From: JALTID01 sp027004335 [NCBI: bacterium] | Lineage (GTDB): Bacteria; JALSQH01 | Assembly: GCA_027004335.1 (NCBI GenBank) | Contig: JALTID010000209.1 | Coordinates: 1-7,121, forward strand | Reading direction: 5' to 3' | Length of the DNA: 7,121 bases | Shown: positions 3 through 7,121 of the stretch, piece by piece | How the letters are laid out: the number at the start of each line of letters is the position of its first letter | Position numbering within the stretch: the first letter of the stretch is position 1 | The notes under the pieces: generated by a model | What the model saw: the letters and a program-made list of their open reading frames with translations, nothing else | What the model was told of the DNA's origin: nothing | Databases searched by the model: none | Translations under genes and position numbers: made by a program

Positions 3-272
<270 letters not shown>

Positions 273-278
273 AACTTC

Positions 279-306
279 TTGACAACCGTTATGACAAATG
301 TATAAT
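279..306 (+). promoter_or_regulatory. Sigma-70-type promoter of the TSUP-DUF364 operon
   Basis: A perfect -35 box TTGACA (279-284) and a perfect -10 box TATAAT (301-306) are separated by 16 bases, one base short of optimal. The expected transcription start is near 312-314. The element begins seven bases after the tgt stop codon. A 36-base stretch (276-311) matches 1919-1954, the promoter of the ModE-like gene, at 32 of 36 positions, so the two operons appear to share a duplicated control region. Confidence 0.88.
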
Positions 307-310
307 AACG
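287..310 (+). promoter_or_regulatory. ModE-like operator 1
   Basis: CGTTAT (287-292) and its exact reverse complement ATAACG (305-310) are separated by 12 bases. From memory, the operator of the E. coli modA promoter has the same half-sites and spacing. The element lies between the -35 box and the start point and covers the -10 box, a position that favours repression. The likely ligand is the ModE-type protein encoded at 1957-2310. Binding is inferred from the sequence and the neighbouring regulator gene. Confidence 0.75.
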
Positions 311-323
311 AATTAACTGTTGA

Positions 324-1121
324 ATGGGAGAAATGATAATACACTACTTTTTGACATTTCTAACAGGTATCTTAGCAGGTACTTTAGGAGGGCTTCTCGG
401 CATTGGTGGAGGAATTATTGTTATGCCGTACCTTAAATTTATCATCGGCCTCCCAATTATGTATGCAGCTGGGACAACAGTAATTACCGTTTTTTTCACC
501 ACATTTGGCGGAACAATTAAGCATCACCGACTTGGCCACATCCATTTTCGGGCCCTTATTCCCATAATAGCATCAGGGGCAATAATGTCAATTGTATTCT
601 CCCTAATATTTCCACATCTTCGAGTTGTTAGCCGCTGGATTAATCTTGGAATGGGGATACTATTTCTCATTGTATCGTTAAGAATGATTGCCGATGCAAT
701 ATGGCTTTCAAATATAATGAGATCCCCTCCACAGGACACTTCAGCAAAAAATAAATTATGGCAAAAAATCACAGTTGGTGCAATAGCAGGGGCATTGCCA
801 GGATTGCTTGGTATTGGTAGTGGTGCAATATTTGTCCCAGTATTTACATTCCTCTTTGGTATGCCGATAAAAGTCGCAATTGGTTCATCACTTGCATGCT
901 TTTCAATAAATGCATTTATCAGTTCAGCCATGAAAGCTTTCCAGGGATTTGTATACTGGGATATCGCTATCCCTATTGCCATTGGGGCGTTTTTCGGTGC
1001 AAATATAGGTGCAAAACTAAATAAAATTTTCCCATCTAAAGTATTGCGGTTTTTATTTGGATCTTTATTTTTATATGTTGCTATAAAATTTATATTGTTG
1101 TTCTGGGGGGTGAAAATATGA
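324..1121 (+). CDS. TSUP (TauE/SafE) family membrane transporter, candidate oxyanion carrier
   Basis: The 265-residue, strongly hydrophobic protein has the internal duplication of the TauE/SafE family and about eight membrane segments. The first-half motif is GGLLGIGGG (about residues 22-30) and the second-half counterpart is GLLGIGSG (about 159-166). Further family features are GTT-ITVFFTTFGG after the first repeat, HHRLGHI, and a C-terminal GAFFGANIGAKL. The only sizeable polar loop is near residues 130-145. Family members move sulfonates, sulfite and related anions. TSUP genes have also been reported under tungstate-responsive regulators (TunR) in sulfate-reducing bacteria, so with a ModE-like operator upstream, molybdate or tungstate is the favoured guess. 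The start is uncertain: ATG 324 lacks a Shine-Dalgarno and would leave a leader of about 11 bases, while ATG 333 has GGGAG only two bases away. The stop overlaps the next gene by 4 bases. Five of seven arginines use CGN codons, unlike the second operon. Confidence 0.9.
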   Translation: MGEMIIHYFLTFLTGILAGTLGGLLGIGGGIIVMPYLKFIIGLPIMYAAGTTVITVFFTTFGGTIKHHRLGHIHFRALIPIIASGAIMSIVFSLIFPHLRVVSRWINLGMGILFLIVSLRMIADAIWLSNIMRSPPQDTSAKNKLWQKITVGAIAGALPGLLGIGSGAIFVPVFTFLFGMPIKVAIGSSLACFSINAFISSAMKAFQGFVYWDIAIPIAIGAFFGANIGAKLNKIFPSKVLRFLFGSLFLYVAIKFILLFWGVKI

Positions 1122-1879
1122 CTAATACTCCAAAAATAATTGAACAGGCAAAAAATAGATTAATTGAAATGATCACCAACAAAAGTATTTTTGATGCCAG
1201 AGTCTCTGTTCTTGCTCGGGCACTAACTCCCGAAGAGGCCATTGGTACCCCGGGGCGACGGGATTTTCCAATAATAATTGGAAAAGAGAAAATGCTTGAA
1301 GCAAAAGTTTTAGGTTTTCGGGGGCAGGCATTTACTGACTCACGAAAAGAATTTATTGGTACTCTGAAAGAAGTTCTTGAAATGCCCTTAAATACAAACA
1401 GTAATCGTGCAATATTTGTAGCAGTTTTTAATGCTCTTATGCGATATTTTGGAAAAGCAAATGGTACAGTCCACTGTAAAAATGAAGAACCTGAAAGATG
1501 TGCAGTTGAAATTGCGGATTTTATACACAACAATTTTCATCCCAAAAAAGTTGGATTAATAGGTTTAAATCCCGCCATTGCTGAGGCTCTTTCGAAGAAG
1601 TTTGGCGGTGATAATCTTTTGATTACAGATCTTTACATTAAGAATATCGGGAGAAAAAAATTTGGTACAAAAATCTTTGATGGCAATATCATGAATGAAA
1701 AACTGATTCAAGCTTCTGATTTTGTACTAATTACTGGAACAACAATTGTTAATGATACCTTTGATGAAATTATGTCAGCGGTGAAAAAATACAACAAAGA
1801 ATATACTTTATACGGAGTAACCAGTGCAGGTATATGCTCGCTTTTTGATATGCCTAGAATCTGCCCTTATAGTAAATAA
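1118..1879 (+). CDS. DUF4213/DUF364 family protein, putative heavy-metal chelation
   Basis: The 253-residue cytoplasmic protein appears to have an enolase-N-like DUF4213 region (about 1-100) followed by the DUF364 Rossmann-like domain (about 112-250). Recognisable motifs are TVHC followed by NEEPERC (117-128), the strand-turn KVGLIGLNPAIAEAL (144-158), LITGTTIVND (204-213) and a cysteine-containing end, GICSLFDMPRICPY (238-251). The conserved Cys, His and acidic residues underlie the family label of putative metal chelation; the biochemical role is unknown. The gene overlaps the TSUP gene by ATGA and is preceded by a G-rich ribosome site at about 1105-1112, so translation is probably coupled. 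Membership in a ModE-like controlled operon suggests it handles molybdenum, tungsten or a related metal, as scaffold, sensor or detoxifier (inference). Seven of twelve arginines use CGN codons, as in its partner. No convincing terminator follows it. Confidence 0.85.
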   Translation: MTNTPKIIEQAKNRLIEMITNKSIFDARVSVLARALTPEEAIGTPGRRDFPIIIGKEKMLEAKVLGFRGQAFTDSRKEFIGTLKEVLEMPLNTNSNRAIFVAVFNALMRYFGKANGTVHCKNEEPERCAVEIADFIHNNFHPKKVGLIGLNPAIAEALSKKFGGDNLLITDLYIKNIGRKKFGTKIFDGNIMNEKLIQASDFVLITGTTIVNDTFDEIMSAVKKYNKEYTLYGVTSAGICSLFDMPRICPYSK

Positions 1880-1921: not shown

Positions 1922-1949
1922 TTGACAATCATTATGACAAAAATATAAT
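1922..1949 (+). promoter_or_regulatory. Sigma-70-type promoter of the ModE-like/TonB/ECF operon
   Basis: TTGACA (1922-1927) and TATAAT (1944-1949) are both perfect, with a 16-base spacer, the same geometry as the promoter at 279-306. The ATG of the regulator is at 1957, only eight bases after the -10 box. Transcription should therefore begin at or within a base or two of the start codon, giving a leaderless message. The 77-base gap from the previous stop holds this promoter and an AT-rich 7-bp inverted repeat (1879-1900) that lacks a T-run. Confidence 0.88.
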
Positions 1950-1953
1950 AACG
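1930..1953 (+). promoter_or_regulatory. ModE-like operator 2 (autoregulatory site)
   Basis: CATTAT (1930-1935) and ATAACG (1948-1953) form an inverted repeat with a 12-base centre and one mismatch (CATTAT against the perfect CGTTAT of operator 1). It covers the -10 box and ends three bases before the ATG at 1957. A bound dimer would block RNA polymerase, so the regulator probably represses itself and the whole operon. The imperfect left half predicts somewhat weaker binding than operator 1. Confidence 0.72.
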
Positions 1954-1956
1954 ACT

Positions 1957-2310
1957 ATGAAGATAAAATCAAAGGTGTGGATTGAAAACGAAAAAGGCGA
2001 AACAATAATAAGCTACGGTAAGTATATCTTATTAAAAGAAATTGAAAAAAAAGGCTCAATCTCAGCAGCTGCAAAAAAAATGGGAACCCCCTTTCGTAAG
2101 GCCTGGGTTATGGTTAAAACCATGAATGAAAGAAGCCTTAAACCTCTAGTTGTTACAAGATCTGGGGGAAAAGATGGAGGAGGAGCTGAATTGACAGAAG
2201 AAGGGAAAAAACTTGTCAGGTTATTTGAGACAATCAACAATAATGTGGAAAATTCTCTCAGGTCATTTGAAAACTTAATAAACATAAAAGAGGAGAAGAA
2301 AGATGGTTAA
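1957..2310 (+). CDS. ModE-type regulator, DNA-binding domain only
   Basis: The 117-residue protein matches the N-terminal winged-helix domain of the molybdate regulator ModE. It starts with a short beta strand region (KVWIENEKGE), then GKYILLKEIEKKGSISAAAKKMG (helix-turn-helix, about residues 21-43), FRKAWVMVKTMNE, a glycine-rich wing GGKDGGGAELT (70-80) and a terminal helix from about 80 to 105 suited to dimerisation. The two molbindin/TOBE domains that bind molybdate in full-length ModE (about 260 residues) are absent, and the chain ends normally, so this is a natural short form rather than a truncation. Such forms may depend on a separate Mop/molbindin protein or another signal. The start lacks a Shine-Dalgarno because the promoter abuts it, and no nearby ATG would keep the helix-turn-helix. 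Its last 8 bases overlap the receptor gene. It probably controls operators at 287-310 and 1930-1953. Confidence 0.88.
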   Translation: MKIKSKVWIENEKGETIISYGKYILLKEIEKKGSISAAAKKMGTPFRKAWVMVKTMNERSLKPLVVTRSGGKDGGGAELTEEGKKLVRLFETINNNVENSLRSFENLINIKEEKKDG

Positions 2311-4273
2311 GTTATTGCTCTACTTTTTTATCTCGGTAACAACATCAACTTCGTCTTCACCTGTAACACACACTGCAGCATATCCGAAACCTACTACAAC
2401 TACAGGGAAAACTGTTATGACAGAAAAGGTAAAATCATTTACTCAAATCCCGACCATCGGTGAAGTCGTAATCACAGGCAAAAGATCTGTTCCCGCGGTC
2501 AGGATCCTCATCCCCCGGAAAAGTATTGAAGAAAACGGCGTAGAAAGCAGCGATAAGATAACAAAGATCACACCTGTTTTAAATGTGGAAGATACTTCAA
2601 GGGGTGATAGGTATCTGTATTTAGCAGGCTTTAATTACAGACAGATTCAGATGTATTTAGATGGGGTCCCTGTTTACATTCCTTACAGCGGAGATATTGG
2701 TGCTGATCTCCTGAAACTGGTAAATATAAAGGAAATAGTTGTGGAACCTGTTCTTCCATCTTTATTTTATGGTCCCAATGCTATGGGAGGAGCAATAAAC
2801 ATTCTCTCCACCACCCCCACCGGTGGGATACATGGGAAGTTTTCAGCAGAAATTAATCAGGTGAGCAATAAAAATGGCAGGTTCAATATTTCAGCAGGAG
2901 AGAATAATTACTATGCAGGTGCAAGCGGGATGATATGGAATTCACCGGGCTTTCCTCTTTCAAAAAAATTTACCTCCTCTCTCAACGAAAATGGGGAGGT
3001 GAGGGAAAACAGCTACACAAAGGGATACACCTTCTTCGGATATACTGGATATAACAGGAATCAACTAAACTTTTTCACCCTAAGATACTACAAAACCTCA
3101 ATGGAAAAAGGGGTACCACCAGAAGTGGGTTCAACAAAACCCAGATACTGGAGATTCACAGATTGGGAAAAAGAATTTTTAAATTTTGTGGGGAGGAAAT
3201 CTCTGGGAGAAAATAGTTACATCAAACTTAACAGTGCATATACAGGGTATTATAATGTTCTTGATTCTTACGATGACAGCACCTATTCAACCCAGACAAA
3301 AAGATACGCTTTCCACTCCACCTATGATGATTACTCTCTTCTTTCATCCCTCACAGGAGGAATAACAAAGGGGATAATATCCACGGATCTACTTTTCACC
3401 TACAGAAAAGATATTCACAGGGAGCAACCAGACTACAACGAAGAATGGTCAGGATATGGTCAGGAGATATATTCAGCTGGATTAAGATCCACCGCATCGG
3501 CAAAAAAGATTATTTTCTCAGCCGAGGGAAGGTATGACAAACTCGCGGCTTTTAAATACCCCAACAGCGATGCACTTAATTACAGAGCCTCTTTAAGGTA
3601 CAATTTCAAAAATGGAAACGCAGGTATTGCAATTGGTTCCACTACAAGATTCCCCACCATGAAGGAAAAATACTCCTATCATCTTGGTAGAAGCATACCC
3701 AATCCCAATCTTAAACCTGAATCACAGGATGCTATCATACTTAATTTTTCAACTCCGCCTTTTTACGGTATAAAAATTAACGGCTTTGGTTATTATTCAA
3801 AACTTAAAAATCTTATAGAAAGTGTGAAAATTAATTCCTCAACAGATCAGAATCAGAACATAAGCAGGGCTTTTCTTACAGGATTTTATTTGGAGGGCCT
3901 CTACCAGAAAAGCGGGATCCTGCTTAAAGCTGCACTACAGGGAACTTGGACAAAGGACCTTGAACATGACACCACCCTTCCATACAGGCCAAGATGGAGA
4001 AGTATACTATCTGCTGGATATTCAGGAAAGAAATTTTCCCTACTAATTTCTCTTAATGGTCAGTATATAACCTTCTATGAGGGTAAAGATGTCACAGACC
4101 TTCACAAGTTAGGAAGCTGGACAACGATTGGCCTACACGGTGATTTCCACATTGACCGTAATATAAAAATTTATACAACGGTTGAAAACCTTTTTGATAA
4201 AAACTATGAAACAGATCACGGATTTCCTGCTGCAGGAAGAGAGATTTTCGCGGGGATTGTGAGTAGTTTTTAG
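2303..4273 (+). CDS. TonB-dependent outer-membrane receptor
   Basis: The 656-residue protein has the full plan of a TonB-dependent transporter. A short hydrophobic N-terminus (LLLYFFISV, residues 4-12) and a Ser/Thr-rich stretch form an atypical signal region, with cleavage plausible near residues 25-26. GEVVITGKR (53-61) resembles a TonB box. The plug spans about 65-172, with MYLDGVPVYIPY (117-128), LVNIKEIVVEP (139-149) and FYGPNAMGGAINI (155-167). The rest is a beta barrel rich in alternating aromatic strands, ending with VENLFDKNYE and a terminal phenylalanine typical of BAM substrates. Family members import siderophores, cobalamin, metals or sugars using TonB-ExbB-ExbD, which are not encoded here. 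The substrate cannot be read from sequence. Co-transcription with a ModE-type regulator and an ECF importer suggests a Mo/W chelate or cofactor. ATG 2303 overlaps the regulator stop and has AGGAG at 2291-2295, seven bases upstream. Only 2 of 28 arginines are CGN. Confidence 0.93.
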   Translation: MVKLLLYFFISVTTSTSSSPVTHTAAYPKPTTTTGKTVMTEKVKSFTQIPTIGEVVITGKRSVPAVRILIPRKSIEENGVESSDKITKITPVLNVEDTSRGDRYLYLAGFNYRQIQMYLDGVPVYIPYSGDIGADLLKLVNIKEIVVEPVLPSLFYGPNAMGGAINILSTTPTGGIHGKFSAEINQVSNKNGRFNISAGENNYYAGASGMIWNSPGFPLSKKFTSSLNENGEVRENSYTKGYTFFGYTGYNRNQLNFFTLRYYKTSMEKGVPPEVGSTKPRYWRFTDWEKEFLNFVGRKSLGENSYIKLNSAYTGYYNVLDSYDDSTYSTQTKRYAFHSTYDDYSLLSSLTGGITKGIISTDLLFTYRKDIHREQPDYNEEWSGYGQEIYSAGLRSTASAKKIIFSAEGRYDKLAAFKYPNSDALNYRASLRYNFKNGNAGIAIGSTTRFPTMKEKYSYHLGRSIPNPNLKPESQDAIILNFSTPPFYGIKINGFGYYSKLKNLIESVKINSSTDQNQNISRAFLTGFYLEGLYQKSGILLKAALQGTWTKDLEHDTTLPYRPRWRSILSAGYSGKKFSLLISLNGQYITFYEGKDVTDLHKLGSWTTIGLHGDFHIDRNIKIYTTVENLFDKNYETDHGFPAAGREIFAGIVSSF

Positions 4274-4275
4274 GT

Positions 4276-5508
4276 ATGAGAGAAGAAGTTGCAAAACTTG
4301 ATGGGGTTTCCCTGTTTCTTGTCCGAAGAAATGAGGAAATTCTGAAAGATGTGAGTTTTTCACTCTCGGAAGGGGAACTCATTGTAATCAGAGGACCAAC
4401 AGGAAGTGGAAAATCACTTTTATTAAAATCAATTGCGGGGAGCAACCTTCAAGGAATAAAAGTAAGGGGAAAAATTAAAACCATTCATGAAAAAATCAGG
4501 GTGCCGCAGGATCCATCTTCGCTGCTGCTGACCCCTTCCGTAAGAACCTTACTATCGTTTCATGATTTTGAAAAGGCTTCAAGGCTACTGGAATATTTCG
4601 GAAAAGAAGAACTGCTCCACAGGAAAACTTACCATCTATCATATGGAGAAAAGAAAATAATTACCCTTCTCCACGCATTAACTTCCTCATCAAAACTTCT
4701 CTTGCTTGATGAACCATTCTCAGGTCTTGATAGCAGGAGAAGAGAAACTCTAAAATGGATTATTGATGAGGAGAGGAAGAGAGGGAGAAGTTTCATAATT
4801 GTTGACCATACTGCAAGCCCTTTTGAAAATGGTAAAATTCTCTACATAAGTACTGCCGAAAAAAGGATAACACGGCAGAAAAGAAAACATAGAAGAGAAC
4901 TACCACCTTTAAGAAATTCAAAAAATGGGAGGGAATTACTTAAAATCAATAAAATAACTGTGAAGGTAGATGGGAAAGAAATTTTAAAAAACCTCTCTTT
5001 TACTCTCAATGAGGGGGAGTTAAAATTTATATCAGGGGAAAATGGAACGGGAAAAACCACTCTGCTCCATGCCATCTCAGGATGGGGGAAAAATGCAGAA
5101 GGTGAGATCAATTACAGAGGAAAAAAGTGGAAGAAAAAAGATCGGAAGAAAAAAACCTTTTTTCTCTCCCAGACACCGGAGAGCAGTTTTTTTTCCCTCA
5201 ATATGGATTATATGAGCAGACGTTCCGGAATCCCGGAGGAAAAAATTGAAAGAAGTAGTCTTGAAAAATTAAAGGGGATCCCCTCAATCTACTGGAGCTA
5301 TGGAGAGAAGGTAAAATTTAATCTACTCTTGGCAGATTCAAGCGAGGCGGAAATAATTATGATCGACGAGACTTTTTCATCTCTTGATTACAAATCCCTT
5401 CTTTTTCTCTACCAGAACCTCAATAGGTGGCTCAACGAAAATAGAGGTATAATAATAACAACTCCGGAAACCGGTACATCCTTTGAGGGAGTAAATCTTG
5501 ACAGGTAA
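4276..5508 (+). CDS. ECF-type ABC transporter ATPase with two fused nucleotide-binding domains
   Basis: Two ABC ATPase domains lie in one 410-residue chain, the arrangement used by some energy-coupling-factor importers in place of separate EcfA and EcfA'. Domain 1 (about 5-195) has Walker A GPTGSGKS (40-47), Q-loop Gln78, signature LSYGE (121-125), Walker B LLLLDE (141-146), D-loop SGLD and switch His178. Domain 2 (about 218-410) has Walker A GENGTGKT (254-261), Q-loop Gln299, signature WSYGE (340-344), Walker B IIMIDE (360-365) and D-loop SSLD, but the switch histidine position reads ITTPE, so no His is present. The linker (about 195-218) is very basic. The protein should power the membrane proteins encoded just downstream by ATP hydrolysis on the cytoplasmic face. 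The gene starts two bases after the receptor stop, with only a weak ribosome site, and overlaps the next gene by 11 bases, so coupling is likely. Confidence 0.92.
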   Translation: MREEVAKLDGVSLFLVRRNEEILKDVSFSLSEGELIVIRGPTGSGKSLLLKSIAGSNLQGIKVRGKIKTIHEKIRVPQDPSSLLLTPSVRTLLSFHDFEKASRLLEYFGKEELLHRKTYHLSYGEKKIITLLHALTSSSKLLLLDEPFSGLDSRRRETLKWIIDEERKRGRSFIIVDHTASPFENGKILYISTAEKRITRQKRKHRRELPPLRNSKNGRELLKINKITVKVDGKEILKNLSFTLNEGELKFISGENGTGKTTLLHAISGWGKNAEGEINYRGKKWKKKDRKKKTFFLSQTPESSFFSLNMDYMSRRSGIPEEKIERSSLEKLKGIPSIYWSYGEKVKFNLLLADSSEAEIIMIDETFSSLDYKSLLFLYQNLNRWLNENRGIIITTPETGTSFEGVNLDR

Positions 5509-6034
5509 AAGAGTAGCTTACAGTGCAGTGTTCGGGATACTTATCGGGTTGTGGGAAACCCTTGCGGGGAATTTCTTACATCAACTGAGGGTCCCTTTCA
5601 CAGGAGAGACCCTATCATTTTTTGACATTCTTATCTTCGCCTATATTTTTCAGAAAACAAGGGACAGAAATATCATACTCTACTCCGTAGCAGTTGCTAT
5701 AGCAATAAGGATCACTCTCATGGGTACATTTTCTCTTGGTCCCATCATTGGAGTAGCTGCCATATCTCTTCTTTTCTATACAGGGACAATTTTGAAAAAA
5801 ATCGCATATCTTGCAGGAGGAACACTGGCGGGACTCTGGTCCCCCTTTTATTTTGGAATAATAAAAGTAAAACTCCTGGGACCTGAACTTCTCCAATCAT
5901 ATAAATTTTTATTTAAAAAAGCCGGGATCACCTTCACTCCAGAAGAGTTAATAATCCTTCTAATAATCGTCGGTGGGGTATCAGGTCTACTGGCAGGGAT
6001 CGCAGGGCAAAAGCTGGGAAGAGATCTACCATGA
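5498..6034 (+). CDS. Small multi-pass membrane protein, candidate ECF substrate-binding S component
   Basis: The 178-residue protein has about five or six hydrophobic segments (roughly 7-26, 41-52, 57-76, 82-98, 103-122, 148-170), the size and topology of ECF S components, which bind the substrate within the membrane. The first segment contains AYSAVFG, small residues spaced as in the S-component face that contacts EcfT. It lies between the double ATPase and an EcfT-like gene, the classic order. I do not recognise a specific S family, so the ligand is unknown; WETLAGNFLHQL (19-30) and PFTGETLSF (33-41) look like candidate conserved segments. The start is a TTG at 5498 with GAGGGA at 5485-5490, seven bases upstream, overlapping the ATPase gene by 11 bases; an in-frame GTG at 5528 is a poorer alternative. 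It overlaps the next gene by ATGA. All six arginines are AGA/AGG. Confidence 0.75.
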   Translation: MTGKRVAYSAVFGILIGLWETLAGNFLHQLRVPFTGETLSFFDILIFAYIFQKTRDRNIILYSVAVAIAIRITLMGTFSLGPIIGVAAISLLFYTGTILKKIAYLAGGTLAGLWSPFYFGIIKVKLLGPELLQSYKFLFKKAGITFTPEELIILLIIVGGVSGLLAGIAGQKLGRDLP

Positions 6035-6555
6035 ACCTGATAATTGGAACATTTTTGATAATAATAAGCATCCTGAAGCTGAATTTAATAAAGGCGGGAG
6101 GAGTGGCTTTACTCTCATTGATCCTTCTCTTTCCTCAGACAAAGATAAAAAAATTTGTATCAATTTTTGTAATACTAACTCTTATCCCACCATTTCTCGC
6201 GCCTGAAAAATTCAATCTTCTCATGCTGAATTCCCTTAAGATTACCATCAGATTTTCAGGTTTCTTTTTAATCATACTCTGGATAAATAAAAAATTCTCG
6301 GAGATAGACATCATCTCCTTCCCTCTACCTACATCAATAACTGCTCCTGTAACTCTTGCACTGAATATCCTGCCCCAGATGAATGAATTCTTCTCAGTCT
6401 CAACAAAGCAGTTAAGAAAAAGAAGGGGCTGGATAAGGGACCTGCCAGAATATGTTAAATTTTTGTTAGCCTATGTTACAAATTTTGCAGAAGAACTTGG
6501 AAAAGAGGTAGAAATCACCCTATCTTTAATTGAAAATGATAAAAGAAATTACTGA
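6031..6555 (+). CDS. EcfT-like transmembrane (T) component of the ECF importer
   Basis: The 174-residue protein begins with about four membrane segments (roughly 2-18, 22-36, 41-57, 71-87) and another near 103-117. It continues into LNILPQMNEFF (111-121) and KQLRKRRGW (126-134). This corresponds to the EcfT consensus in which an L-x-x-IP-x-L segment leads to a coupling helix ending in an Ala-Arg-Gly-like motif; here the motif reads RRG (131-133). In the family this helix docks into the ATPase groove and transmits ATP-driven movement to the S component. The protein is shorter than most EcfT proteins (usually above 200 residues), but it sits in the expected place after the ATPase and S genes. 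ATG 6031 overlaps the S-component stop by 4 bases, and its own 3' end overlaps the NTPase gene by about 20 bases. All six arginines use AGA/AGG. Confidence 0.8.
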   Translation: MNLIIGTFLIIISILKLNLIKAGGVALLSLILLFPQTKIKKFVSIFVILTLIPPFLAPEKFNLLMLNSLKITIRFSGFFLIILWINKKFSEIDIISFPLPTSITAPVTLALNILPQMNEFFSVSTKQLRKRRGWIRDLPEYVKFLLAYVTNFAEELGKEVEITLSLIENDKRNY

Positions 6556-7009
6556 AGGAAAAATTACTTACATCATGGGACCGCTGAATTCCGGGAAGAC
6601 CACTTACCTGAAAAGAAAAATAGCTGAGAATCCAGACAACTATATAGGTTTTCTATCTCTTCCCATATACTTCTATCATGGATTAAAAAATTACTATCTT
6701 AAAGGCATAAATATCCCTATAGAAGGCCTTCTTACAGCTCCAGATCCTCTCTTATTACATCCACCCCTCTTTTACTGGCGAAAAAGATTTTTCTCACAGT
6801 TTATGTTTGATACTGTAACTGAATTTGTTATTGAAGATTCTGAAATTTCAACAAATAATAAAATATTTGTTATTGACGAGGTAGGCCCTCTGGAAAAAAC
6901 TGGAAAAGGATGGAACAAACTAATTGACTTTCTTGTCAAAAATAATGTAAAATTAATTATGGTGGTGAGGAGAAAAGAGAGCAGAAAAAAACTTGAAAAT
7001 AAATTTTAA
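6536..7009 (+). CDS. THEP1-like P-loop NTPase (NTPase_1 family)
   Basis: The 157-residue protein has the nucleotide-binding layout of the THEP1/NTPase_1 family: beta strand ITYIM, Walker A GPLNSGKT (15-22), and a Walker B-like strand IFVIDEVGPLE (110-120) with the family's DE-x-GP-x-E signature, followed by LIMVVRR. Characterised members hydrolyse nucleoside triphosphates slowly, and their cell role is unclear. The central segment (about 45-85, rich in Tyr, Leu and Pro) is less familiar to me. As the last gene of the operon it may process the imported ligand, remodel a nucleotide-linked cofactor, or assist the transporter; none of these is shown by sequence. The start is uncertain: ATG 6536 is chosen, a TTG at 6530 would add two residues, and ATG 6575 would delete the strand before Walker A. 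No Shine-Dalgarno is evident, so translation probably depends on coupling through the overlap with the T-component gene. Confidence 0.85.
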   Translation: MIKEITEGKITYIMGPLNSGKTTYLKRKIAENPDNYIGFLSLPIYFYHGLKNYYLKGINIPIEGLLTAPDPLLLHPPLFYWRKRFFSQFMFDTVTEFVIEDSEISTNNKIFVIDEVGPLEKTGKGWNKLIDFLVKNNVKLIMVVRRKESRKKLENKF

Positions 7010-7070: not shown

Positions 7071-7105
7071 CGGCGGGAAAGCGTCACGCTTTCCTGCCGT
7101 TTTTT
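7071..7105 (+). terminator. Strong intrinsic terminator of the ModE-like/TonB/ECF operon
   Basis: CGGCGGGAAAGCG (7071-7083) pairs with CGCTTTCCTGCCG (7087-7099) over 13 positions, including one G-U pair, around a three-base loop TCA. Six T follow (7100-7105). The T-run is only on the + strand side, so it serves transcription from the left. It lies 62 bases after the NTPase stop; the AT-rich stretch between them and the last 16 bases of the window show no gene. Confidence 0.93.
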
Positions 7106-7121
7106 AACAAGAGGCTAATTC

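What the first reader, a model, noticed from the sequence alone, without database searches (positions are those of the whole stretch)
1957..7009. Candidate two-membrane uptake system: ModE-type regulator + TonB receptor + fused-ATPase ECF importer + NTPase in one operon
Seen: six genes on one strand overlap or nearly touch between one promoter and one strong terminator. Known: TonB receptors and ECF importers handle scarce, often bulky ligands (vitamins, chelated metals), while molybdate and tungstate usually enter by ModABC, TupABC or WtpABC with a periplasmic binding protein, and none is encoded here. Inferred: a ModE-controlled receptor/ECF pair could import a Mo/W chelate (molybdophore) or a pterin cofactor. 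I know of no characterised system with this gene set.
Basis: inference. Interest (0 to 1): 0.82.

Follow-up and report, generated by a model that had tools for sequence, protein, structure and literature searches.

The report
Likely molybdenum-cofactor uptake operon
These genes look like a two-membrane import system, under molybdenum-type control, that may let bacteria take up ready-made molybdenum cofactor, a molecule that cells are generally thought to have to make for themselves.

Summary
The operon is real: six same-strand genes, a perfect sigma-70-type promoter and a strong terminator. The molybdenum link now has independent support. The promoter carries an E. coli-type ModE box (CGNTAT-N12-ATANCG, one mismatch); an exact copy precedes a second operon in the window (TauE-type permease plus DUF364), and another precedes the orthologous genes of a related genus. 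The S component has an ECF S fold and belongs to an unnamed family, usually fused as S-T-NTPase. In 34 of 77 related loci a Mo-linked gene (MobA, molybdoenzyme, ModE, DUF364) lies within 4 kb; one locus has a Moco riboswitch.

Which substrate? Twenty of 59 family genomes show no MoaA (or MoaC), MoaE or MoeA, yet 16 of these 20 keep molybdopterin-dinucleotide enzymes. Five of six genomes with a distant subfamily fuse the NTPase to MobA. This favours import of molybdopterin/Moco over an oxyanion or chelate. Against: the window's own genome encodes MoaA and MoeA, its S protein is divergent, most genomes are drafts, and nothing has been assayed.

Verdict: Mo/W-cofactor uptake about 0.85; Moco/molybdopterin as substrate about 0.5. 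If true, it would help explain 'orphan' molybdoproteins.

The parts
279..311 (+). promoter-operator 1: perfect -35/-10 hexamers with an embedded ModE box CGTTAT-N12-ATAACG (287-310)
   Evidence: consensus taken from PMC545781 (passages)
324..1121 (+). TauE/SafE-family permease, first gene of the second operon under the same operator
   Evidence: PF01925 E=3.7e-47
1118..1879 (+). DUF364 protein ('putative heavy-metal chelation')
   Evidence: PF04016 E=6.1e-10; DUF364 lies within 4 kb of the S gene in 12 of 77 related loci
1922..1954 (+). promoter-operator 2, ModE-box-like CATTAT-N12-ATAACG (1930-1953, one mismatch)
1957..2310 (+). ModE-type regulator, DNA-binding domain only (117 aa)
   Evidence: TIGR00637 E=1.7e-25, 89 bits, below the 98.5 cut-off
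2303..4273 (+). TonB-dependent receptor
   Evidence: PF07715 plug E=3.2e-10; weak BtuB-type match TIGR01779 E=1.9e-20, far below cut-off
4276..5508 (+). double ABC ATPase (two domains in one protein)
   Evidence: PF00005, two stretches, E=1.3e-38
5498..6034 (+). ECF S component (TTG start), substrate-binding unit
   Evidence: AlphaFold2 model pLDDT 92.4; best solved match 5edl, an ECF S component, Z 13.2, rmsd 3.0, 155 aligned
6031..6555 (+). T-like membrane protein (EcfT role inferred)
   Evidence: position, size and an LRKRRGW stretch; no usable sequence match
6530..7009 (+). THEP1-type P-loop NTPase
   Evidence: PF03266 31.8 bits, over cut-off; the same domain in the fused relative L078 matches THEP1 1ye8 at Z 19.1
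7071..7099 (+). intrinsic terminator
   Evidence: 13-pair stem with T-run

Best explanation
A ModE-type regulator, presumably a repressor, controls an uptake system for a Mo/W cofactor, most likely molybdopterin or Moco itself. The TonB receptor would carry the bulky pterin cofactor across the outer membrane. The S protein would bind it, and the T protein with the double ABC ATPase would move it across the inner membrane. The THEP1-type NTPase would act at the cytoplasmic side like MobB and pass the cofactor to MobA or straight to enzymes; conversion to the dinucleotide would trap it. In most relatives S, T and NTPase are one protein with no ABC ATPase encoded nearby; trapping by NTPase/MobA might drive uptake there. 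Shown here: operon, operator, S fold, THEP1 fold in a relative, gene-neighbour and fusion links, and presence in genomes without detected Moco synthesis. Inferred: transport direction, substrate, the T role, the NTPase role, and repression.
For: Regulation: in the own genome and G001 the operator core, up to 3 mismatches, occurs at three places: two in this window, and one directly upstream of the ModE-receptor orthologues in G001 (the reversed control pattern gave one match, in G001). Exact ModE boxes with N12 occur 7 times in 1,096,920 bases of 88 related loci, all just upstream of the S operon (L006 twice, L068, L075, L076, L081, L091); 12 other spacings gave 0-5 and reversed controls 0-3. 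Neighbours within 4 kb in 77 loci: MobA 16, molybdopterin oxidoreductase 12, DUF364 12, DmsC 8, TonB receptor 6, ModE 3; beyond 4 kb only one of all these. G111, a distant lineage, repeats receptor, fused S-T-NTPase and ModE with two boxes. The only riboswitch in 81 related loci scanned is RF01055 (Moco/W), upstream of a MobA-S-T-NTPase operon in L047. Cofactor rather than metal: 14 of 53 family genomes show no strong MoaA, no MoaE and no MoeA, yet 10 of the 14 have PF01568 enzymes; of four of these ten enzymes scanned, NapA in G157 and formate dehydrogenase in G152 are over cut-off. The six genomes with the distant subfamily show no MoaC, MoaE, MoeA or ModA, but each has an FdhF/YdeP enzyme over cut-off; five fuse the NTPase to MobA next to S-T, and three carry FdhD nearby.
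Against: G000 encodes MoaA and MoeA, and G001 also MoaE, so salvage is not needed there; 39 of 53 family genomes keep at least one of MoaA, MoaE, MoeA. Window S is only 21-30% identical to the aligned relatives other than G001 and sits on a very long branch. 43 of 77 loci show no Mo-linked gene by these profiles within 4 kb, and only 6 loci carry an exact ModE box. Four of the 14 no-synthesis genomes lack PF01568 too. Missing genes in MAGs may be assembly gaps; MoaA was not searched in the six distant genomes, MoaC not in the 53. No ligand, transport or expression data exist. The Moco riboswitch also lies before molybdate transporter genes (PMC2408646, abstract in listing), so it does not separate the two substrates.
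Confidence: 0.5

Rival explanations
1. Import of molybdenum or tungsten itself, as oxyanion or as a chelate with a molybdophore, by receptor plus ECF transporter, with DUF364 handling the chelator.
For: ModE box control. ModA is absent over cut-off in 48 of 53 family genomes, G000 and G001 included. DUF364 has been tied by genome context to molybdate, tungstate and vanadium transport (PMC2954201, passages).
Against: Family members in genomes without any detected Moco synthesis would have no use for bare Mo/W. ModA is also missing in 115 of 145 MoaC-positive genomes of a 296-genome class sample, where the S family is rare (7 of 296), so lack of ModA is weak evidence. TupA and WtpA were not searched.
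Confidence: 0.3
2. S-T-NTPase is a membrane platform for maturation or delivery of the molybdenum cofactor near MobA, not a transporter.
For: Most members are single S-T-NTPase proteins (64 of 77), with no ABC ATPase within 4 kb, as far as the contigs reach, in 74 of 77 loci; NTPase-MobA fusions. MobB was recently found to be needed for W-cofactor assembly in Methylorubrum (PMC13197769, passages).
Against: The S fold is that of ECF substrate-binding units, and TonB receptors lie within 4 kb in 6 of 77 loci, besides the window and the uncounted L067. The window and G001 keep a double ABC ATPase. It leaves the cofactor source in no-synthesis genomes unexplained.
Confidence: 0.1
3. Import of another heterocycle, such as queuine/preQ1 or a vitamin, with molybdenum neighbours by coincidence.
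For: TGT ends at 272 in the window; QueA-TGT lie upstream of the G001 operon (recognised by eye); QueA lies within 5 kb upstream of S in 4 of 77 loci. The receptor scores best, weakly, against BtuB models.
Against: MobA is within 4 kb in 16 of 77 loci against 3 for QueA and none for TGT. ModE boxes, MobA-NTPase fusions and the Moco riboswitch all point to molybdenum. The S protein matches no Pfam or NCBIfam family.
Confidence: 0.07

Closest known systems
Group I ECF importers with their own ATPases (5edl S component; recalled, from no call, to be YkoE of the YkoEDC thiamin-precursor system)
   Same: S fold (Z 13.2), a T-like protein and a double ABC ATPase in one operon, no binding protein
   Different: No sequence-family match; a TonB receptor, ModE control and a THEP1-type NTPase; relatives mostly lack a neighbouring ABC ATPase
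ModE regulon and ModABC molybdate uptake
   Same: E. coli-type ModE box CGNTAT-N12-ATANCG (consensus in PMC545781, passages) and a ModE-type HTH protein
   Different: No ModA/B/C in the operon; the regulator lacks a molybdate-binding domain, as do the single-domain ModE proteins of Desulfovibrio and D. psychrophila (PMC545781 passage)
MobA-MobB pair for bis-MGD synthesis
   Same: P-loop NTPase next to, or fused with, MobA in relatives
   Different: The NTPase is THEP1-type (Z 19.1 to 1ye8; MobB 4oyh only Z 7.6) and is usually fused to the S-T membrane part
Dietary Moco uptake in C. elegans (PMC9793310, passages)
   Same: Ready-made Moco crosses membranes from outside
   Different: Animal; the passages read call the mechanism unknown
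Type 11 secretion system outer-membrane proteins (PMC12282271, one passage)
   Different: Another protein family, Proteobacteria, no ECF importer or ModE control mentioned in that passage

Membership tests
ECF transporter | S component with the ECF S fold | tested here: met
   Model pLDDT 92.4; 5edl Z 13.2 over 155 residues, RibU Z 8.7, ThiT 8.0. Caution: pMMO subunits score Z 11 and Foldseek E for 5edl is only 0.028
ECF transporter | two ABC ATPase domains | tested here: met
   PF00005 two stretches in 4276-5508
ECF transporter | EcfT-type transmembrane coupling protein | tested here: inconclusive
   174-aa T-like protein, LRKRRGW stretch, no family or PDB sequence match; not modelled alone
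ECF transporter | no periplasmic binding protein | tested here: met
   none among the nine window ORFs scanned
known ECF vitamin S families (BioY, RibU, ThiT, QueT and others) | sequence match to a curated family | tested here: inconclusive
   no Pfam or NCBIfam match up to E 0.5; weak profiles may miss it
ModE | ModE DNA-binding domain | tested here: inconclusive
   TIGR00637 E=1.7e-25 but 89 bits, below the 98.5 cut-off
ModE | molybdate-binding (Mop/TOBE) domain | tested here: not met
   117 aa, HTH only
ModE regulon | CGNTAT-N12-ATANCG box at the promoter | tested here: met
   287-310 exact, 1930-1953 one mismatch; binding not tested
TonB-dependent receptor | plug domain | tested here: met
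   PF07715 40.9 bits, cut-off 23.9
TonB-dependent receptor | 22-strand outer-membrane barrel (feature recalled) | tested here: inconclusive
   no Pfam barrel domain reported; one alignment to TIGR01779 over residues 65-649
THEP1 NTPase | PF03266 domain and THEP1 fold | tested here: met
   31.8 bits over 23.9; fold tested in the fused relative L078 only
ModABC/WtpABC/TupABC | SBP-dependent Mo/W ABC importer | tested here: not met
   no SBP in the window; no ModA in G000, 80.2% complete
Moco importer (proposed) | transport of molybdopterin/Moco | not testable with these tools
   needs a binding or uptake assay

The most novel reading that the evidence does not exclude
This is a bacterial import and salvage route for the molybdenum cofactor. 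A TonB receptor and an ECF-type S-T unit bring in molybdopterin/Moco, and a THEP1-type NTPase tied to MobA traps it. In most members the NTPase stands in for the ABC ATPases. It would let bacteria run molybdoenzymes without making the cofactor.
Probability: 0.42. Interest if true: 0.95.

Novelty: new variant of a known kind. Interest (0 to 1): 0.84.

Why it matters
The stated prevailing view is that cells needing Moco must synthesise it de novo (PMC9793310 abstract). A 2018 survey found several hundred organisms with only part of the Mo trait, the majority of them with molybdoproteins but no complete Moco pathway and mostly no known Mo transporter, and left the cause open (PMC6147048 passages). 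A transporter family that occurs in such genomes makes that question testable, would change which microbes are called Mo-independent, and would add Moco to the shared cofactors of microbial communities.

Tried and rejected
ModA absence as proof of Mo import: rejected as weak, because 115 of 145 MoaC-positive class genomes also lack ModA (overlap counted by hand: 30 have both). Queuosine transport: considered because of TGT/QueA neighbours, not favoured. Vitamin riboswitches: none at gathering score in the window or in 81 of the 88 related loci. Sequence search of T and of the S alignment against the PDB gave nothing usable. The first genome scan with the single S protein found no relatives; the alignment found 143, of which 80 loci were kept. 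A Pfam scan of 55 of the 100 listed further neighbours showed no dominant extra family among the first 25 of 66 families: RmuC 3, TatC 2, MoCF_biosynth 2, QueA-type 2, NrfD 1, MoeA_N 1. Four of 81 loci (L009, L046, L067, L071) were dropped from the neighbour counts because my gene calling yielded no S gene there; they hold one MobA (L071) and one TonB receptor (L067) hit. The 53 genomes are G000, G001, G111 and those of 50 loci that I picked by hand for diversity out of the 79 other loci. Literature: 10 searches of the held library; their listings, several of them capped (one search showed 12 of 618, 20 of 30, 20 of 21), named no bacterial Moco importer and no such gene set in titles or abstract starts. 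One paper suggests molybdopterin uptake for another outer-membrane family (PMC12282271). Papers outside that library were not seen.
Full report
The operon. The contig is 7,121 bases of a 1.5-Mb draft genome, 80.2% complete. Families: ModE-type HTH, TonB receptor, double ABC ATPase, THEP1-type NTPase. Upstream lie a TGT fragment (3-272), a TauE/SafE permease and a DUF364 protein.

Shared operator. The promoter at 1922-1954 is repeated at 279-311 before the permease/DUF364 pair; this 33-position pattern has exactly two matches, none in 200 shuffles. The first copy holds a perfect inverted repeat CGTTAT-N12-ATAACG. The E. coli ModE consensus as printed in PMC545781 (passages), ATCGNTATATA-N6-TATATANCGAT, is CGNTAT-N12-ATANCG at its core, so the first copy fits exactly and the second has one mismatch. 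Over the own genome and G001, up to 3 mismatches, the core occurs at the two window sites and at one G001 place, directly before the ModE and receptor orthologues; the reversed control gave one match, in G001. In G001 the receptor is followed by the ATPase up to the contig end, and another contig starts with an ATPase end, then S, T and NTPase, so the same operon appears to be split by assembly. Seven bases separate the -10 hexamer from the ModE ATG, so that message may be leaderless; that is inference.

The S family. The model of window S is confident (pLDDT 92.4). Its best solved match is an ECF S component (5edl, Z 13.2, rmsd 3.0, 155 aligned; Foldseek E only 0.028), ahead of pMMO subunits (Z 11.0), TmRibU (8.7) and ThiT (8.0). 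In a fused relative, Maribellus sp. YY47 (L078), the N-terminal part again matches 5edl (Z 14.5) and the C-terminal part THEP1 (1ye8, Z 19.1). An alignment scan found 143 relatives among public genomes and kept 80 loci, mostly titled Bacteroidota or Acidobacteria, with Ignavibacteria, KSB1 and Armatimonadetes. In 64 of 77 loci the S gene runs on into the NTPase as one protein; two of the other 13 are cut by contig ends. Invariant S residues include E20, G24, F26, L27, H28, P33, F34, and the E, the H and PF-G recur in the distant subfamily (by eye).

Neighbours. My own profiles, seeded with proteins checked, gave within 4 kb of S in 77 of 81 loci: MobA 16, molybdopterin oxidoreductase 12, DUF364 12, DmsC 8, TonB receptor 6, NarJ-type 3, ModE 3, ABC ATPase 3. 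Beyond 4 kb: one molybdopterin oxidoreductase and three ABC ATPases, none of the others (near 479,078 bases, far 368,711). 34 of 77 loci have a Mo-linked gene if DUF364 counts, 23 if it does not; so more than half show none by these profiles. G111, a distant lineage, has receptor, S-T-NTPase and ModE in a row with two ModE boxes; it also has ModA. The TauE permease of the window has no profile match near any relative.

ModE boxes and riboswitch. In 1,096,920 bases of 88 loci the exact N12 box occurs seven times, always just upstream of the S operon: before the receptor in L006 (twice), before DUF364 in L068 and L081, before S in L075 and L076, before ModE in L091. In L075 the longest ORF reading starts 6 bases before the box; a later ATG is the likelier start. 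Other spacings from 6 to 18 gave 0-5, reversed controls 0-3. Only these 6 loci carry it. Rfam on 81 of the 88 related loci gave one riboswitch, RF01055 (57.9 bits, gathering 36) at L047:2226-2378, followed by a terminator-like stem (by eye), a small gene, MobA and S-T-NTPase on one strand.

Metal or cofactor. Over 53 family genomes (G000, G001, G111 and 50 picked loci), ModA is over cut-off in 5, a strong MoaA (E below 1e-60, my threshold) is found in 36, MoaE in 17 and MoeA in 38, PF00384 in 52 (this includes complex I and other homologues), PF01568 in 48. Fourteen lack MoaA, MoaE and MoeA (G150, G152, G153, G157, G159, G160, G167, G168, G175, G178, G179, G184, G191, G194); ten of these have PF01568. 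Of four of these ten enzymes scanned, NapA (G157) and formate dehydrogenase (G152) exceed their cut-offs, while those of G150 and G168 are PhsA-like below cut-off. In a sample of 296 class genomes, completeness of at least 90 asked for, the S profile hit 7: the centre G165 and six others. Those six show no MoaC (145 of 296 do), no MoaE, no MoeA and no ModA, but each has an FdhF/YdeP enzyme over cut-off. In five the S-T gene is followed by an NTPase-MobA fusion (my profiles; four of the five checked with NCBIfam); FdhD lies nearby in three. A quick tree of 57 rows needs at least 11 changes between 'has' and 'lacks' synthesis, so the pattern looks scattered, though 24 of 54 inner branches are poorly supported.

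Reading. Genomes with bis-MGD-type enzymes and this importer but no detected Moco synthesis need the pterin, not bare metal. S-T-NTPase and NTPase-MobA fusions tie the importer to the step after Moco. DUF364 was proposed to act on flavin- or pterin-like compounds near metal transporters (PMC2954201 passages). I therefore prefer Moco/molybdopterin import (about 0.5) over Mo/W chelate or oxyanion (about 0.3). The permease of the first operon could be the oxyanion route; that is speculation.

Limits. G000 encodes MoaA and MoeA. Window S and G001 S form a long branch (7.4 changes per column), so the substrate may differ from the family's. Nineteen of the 53 genomes have a strong MoaA but no MoaE at this threshold; a divergent MoaE may be missed. 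Draft genomes may hide genes. MoaA was not searched in the six distant genomes, nor MoaC in the 53 apart from G165. MoaC-negative genomes without S were not tested for PF01568, so whether S is enriched in them is unknown. No experiment was done.

Noticed in passing
window 7082-7121; G000:C211:1-40; L004 downstream of its NTPase: The end of the terminator region recurs at the start of another contig (95% over 40 bases), and a similar GGCGGGAAAG-type stretch seems to follow the G001 NTPase (read from an ORF translation): a repeated terminator element or a contig overlap.
   Followed up: no
window 1944-1957: The -10 hexamer ends 7 bases before the ModE ATG, so its message may be leaderless.
   Followed up: no
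window 3-272; L091:1550-3718; L028, L032, L042, L051: Queuosine genes (TGT, QueA) lie near the system in the window lineage, and QueA lies upstream in four Bacteroidota loci.
   Followed up: partly
G154, G156, G158, G161, G164, G165, G166, G170, G171, G172, G177, G183, G185, G188, G189, G192: Sixteen genomes with strong MoaA and with MoeA but no MoaE at E 1e-6: a divergent or unknown molybdopterin synthase, or a missed match.
   Followed up: no
L029 and L047: A small carboxymuconolactone-decarboxylase-like gene (family named by eye) lies beside the S gene in L029 and before MobA in L047.
   Followed up: no
alignment, T region: The relatives aligned, whose loci mostly lack a neighbouring ABC ATPase, lack the LRKRRGW-like stretch that the window and G001 T proteins keep, as if ATPase coupling had been lost.
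   Followed up: partly
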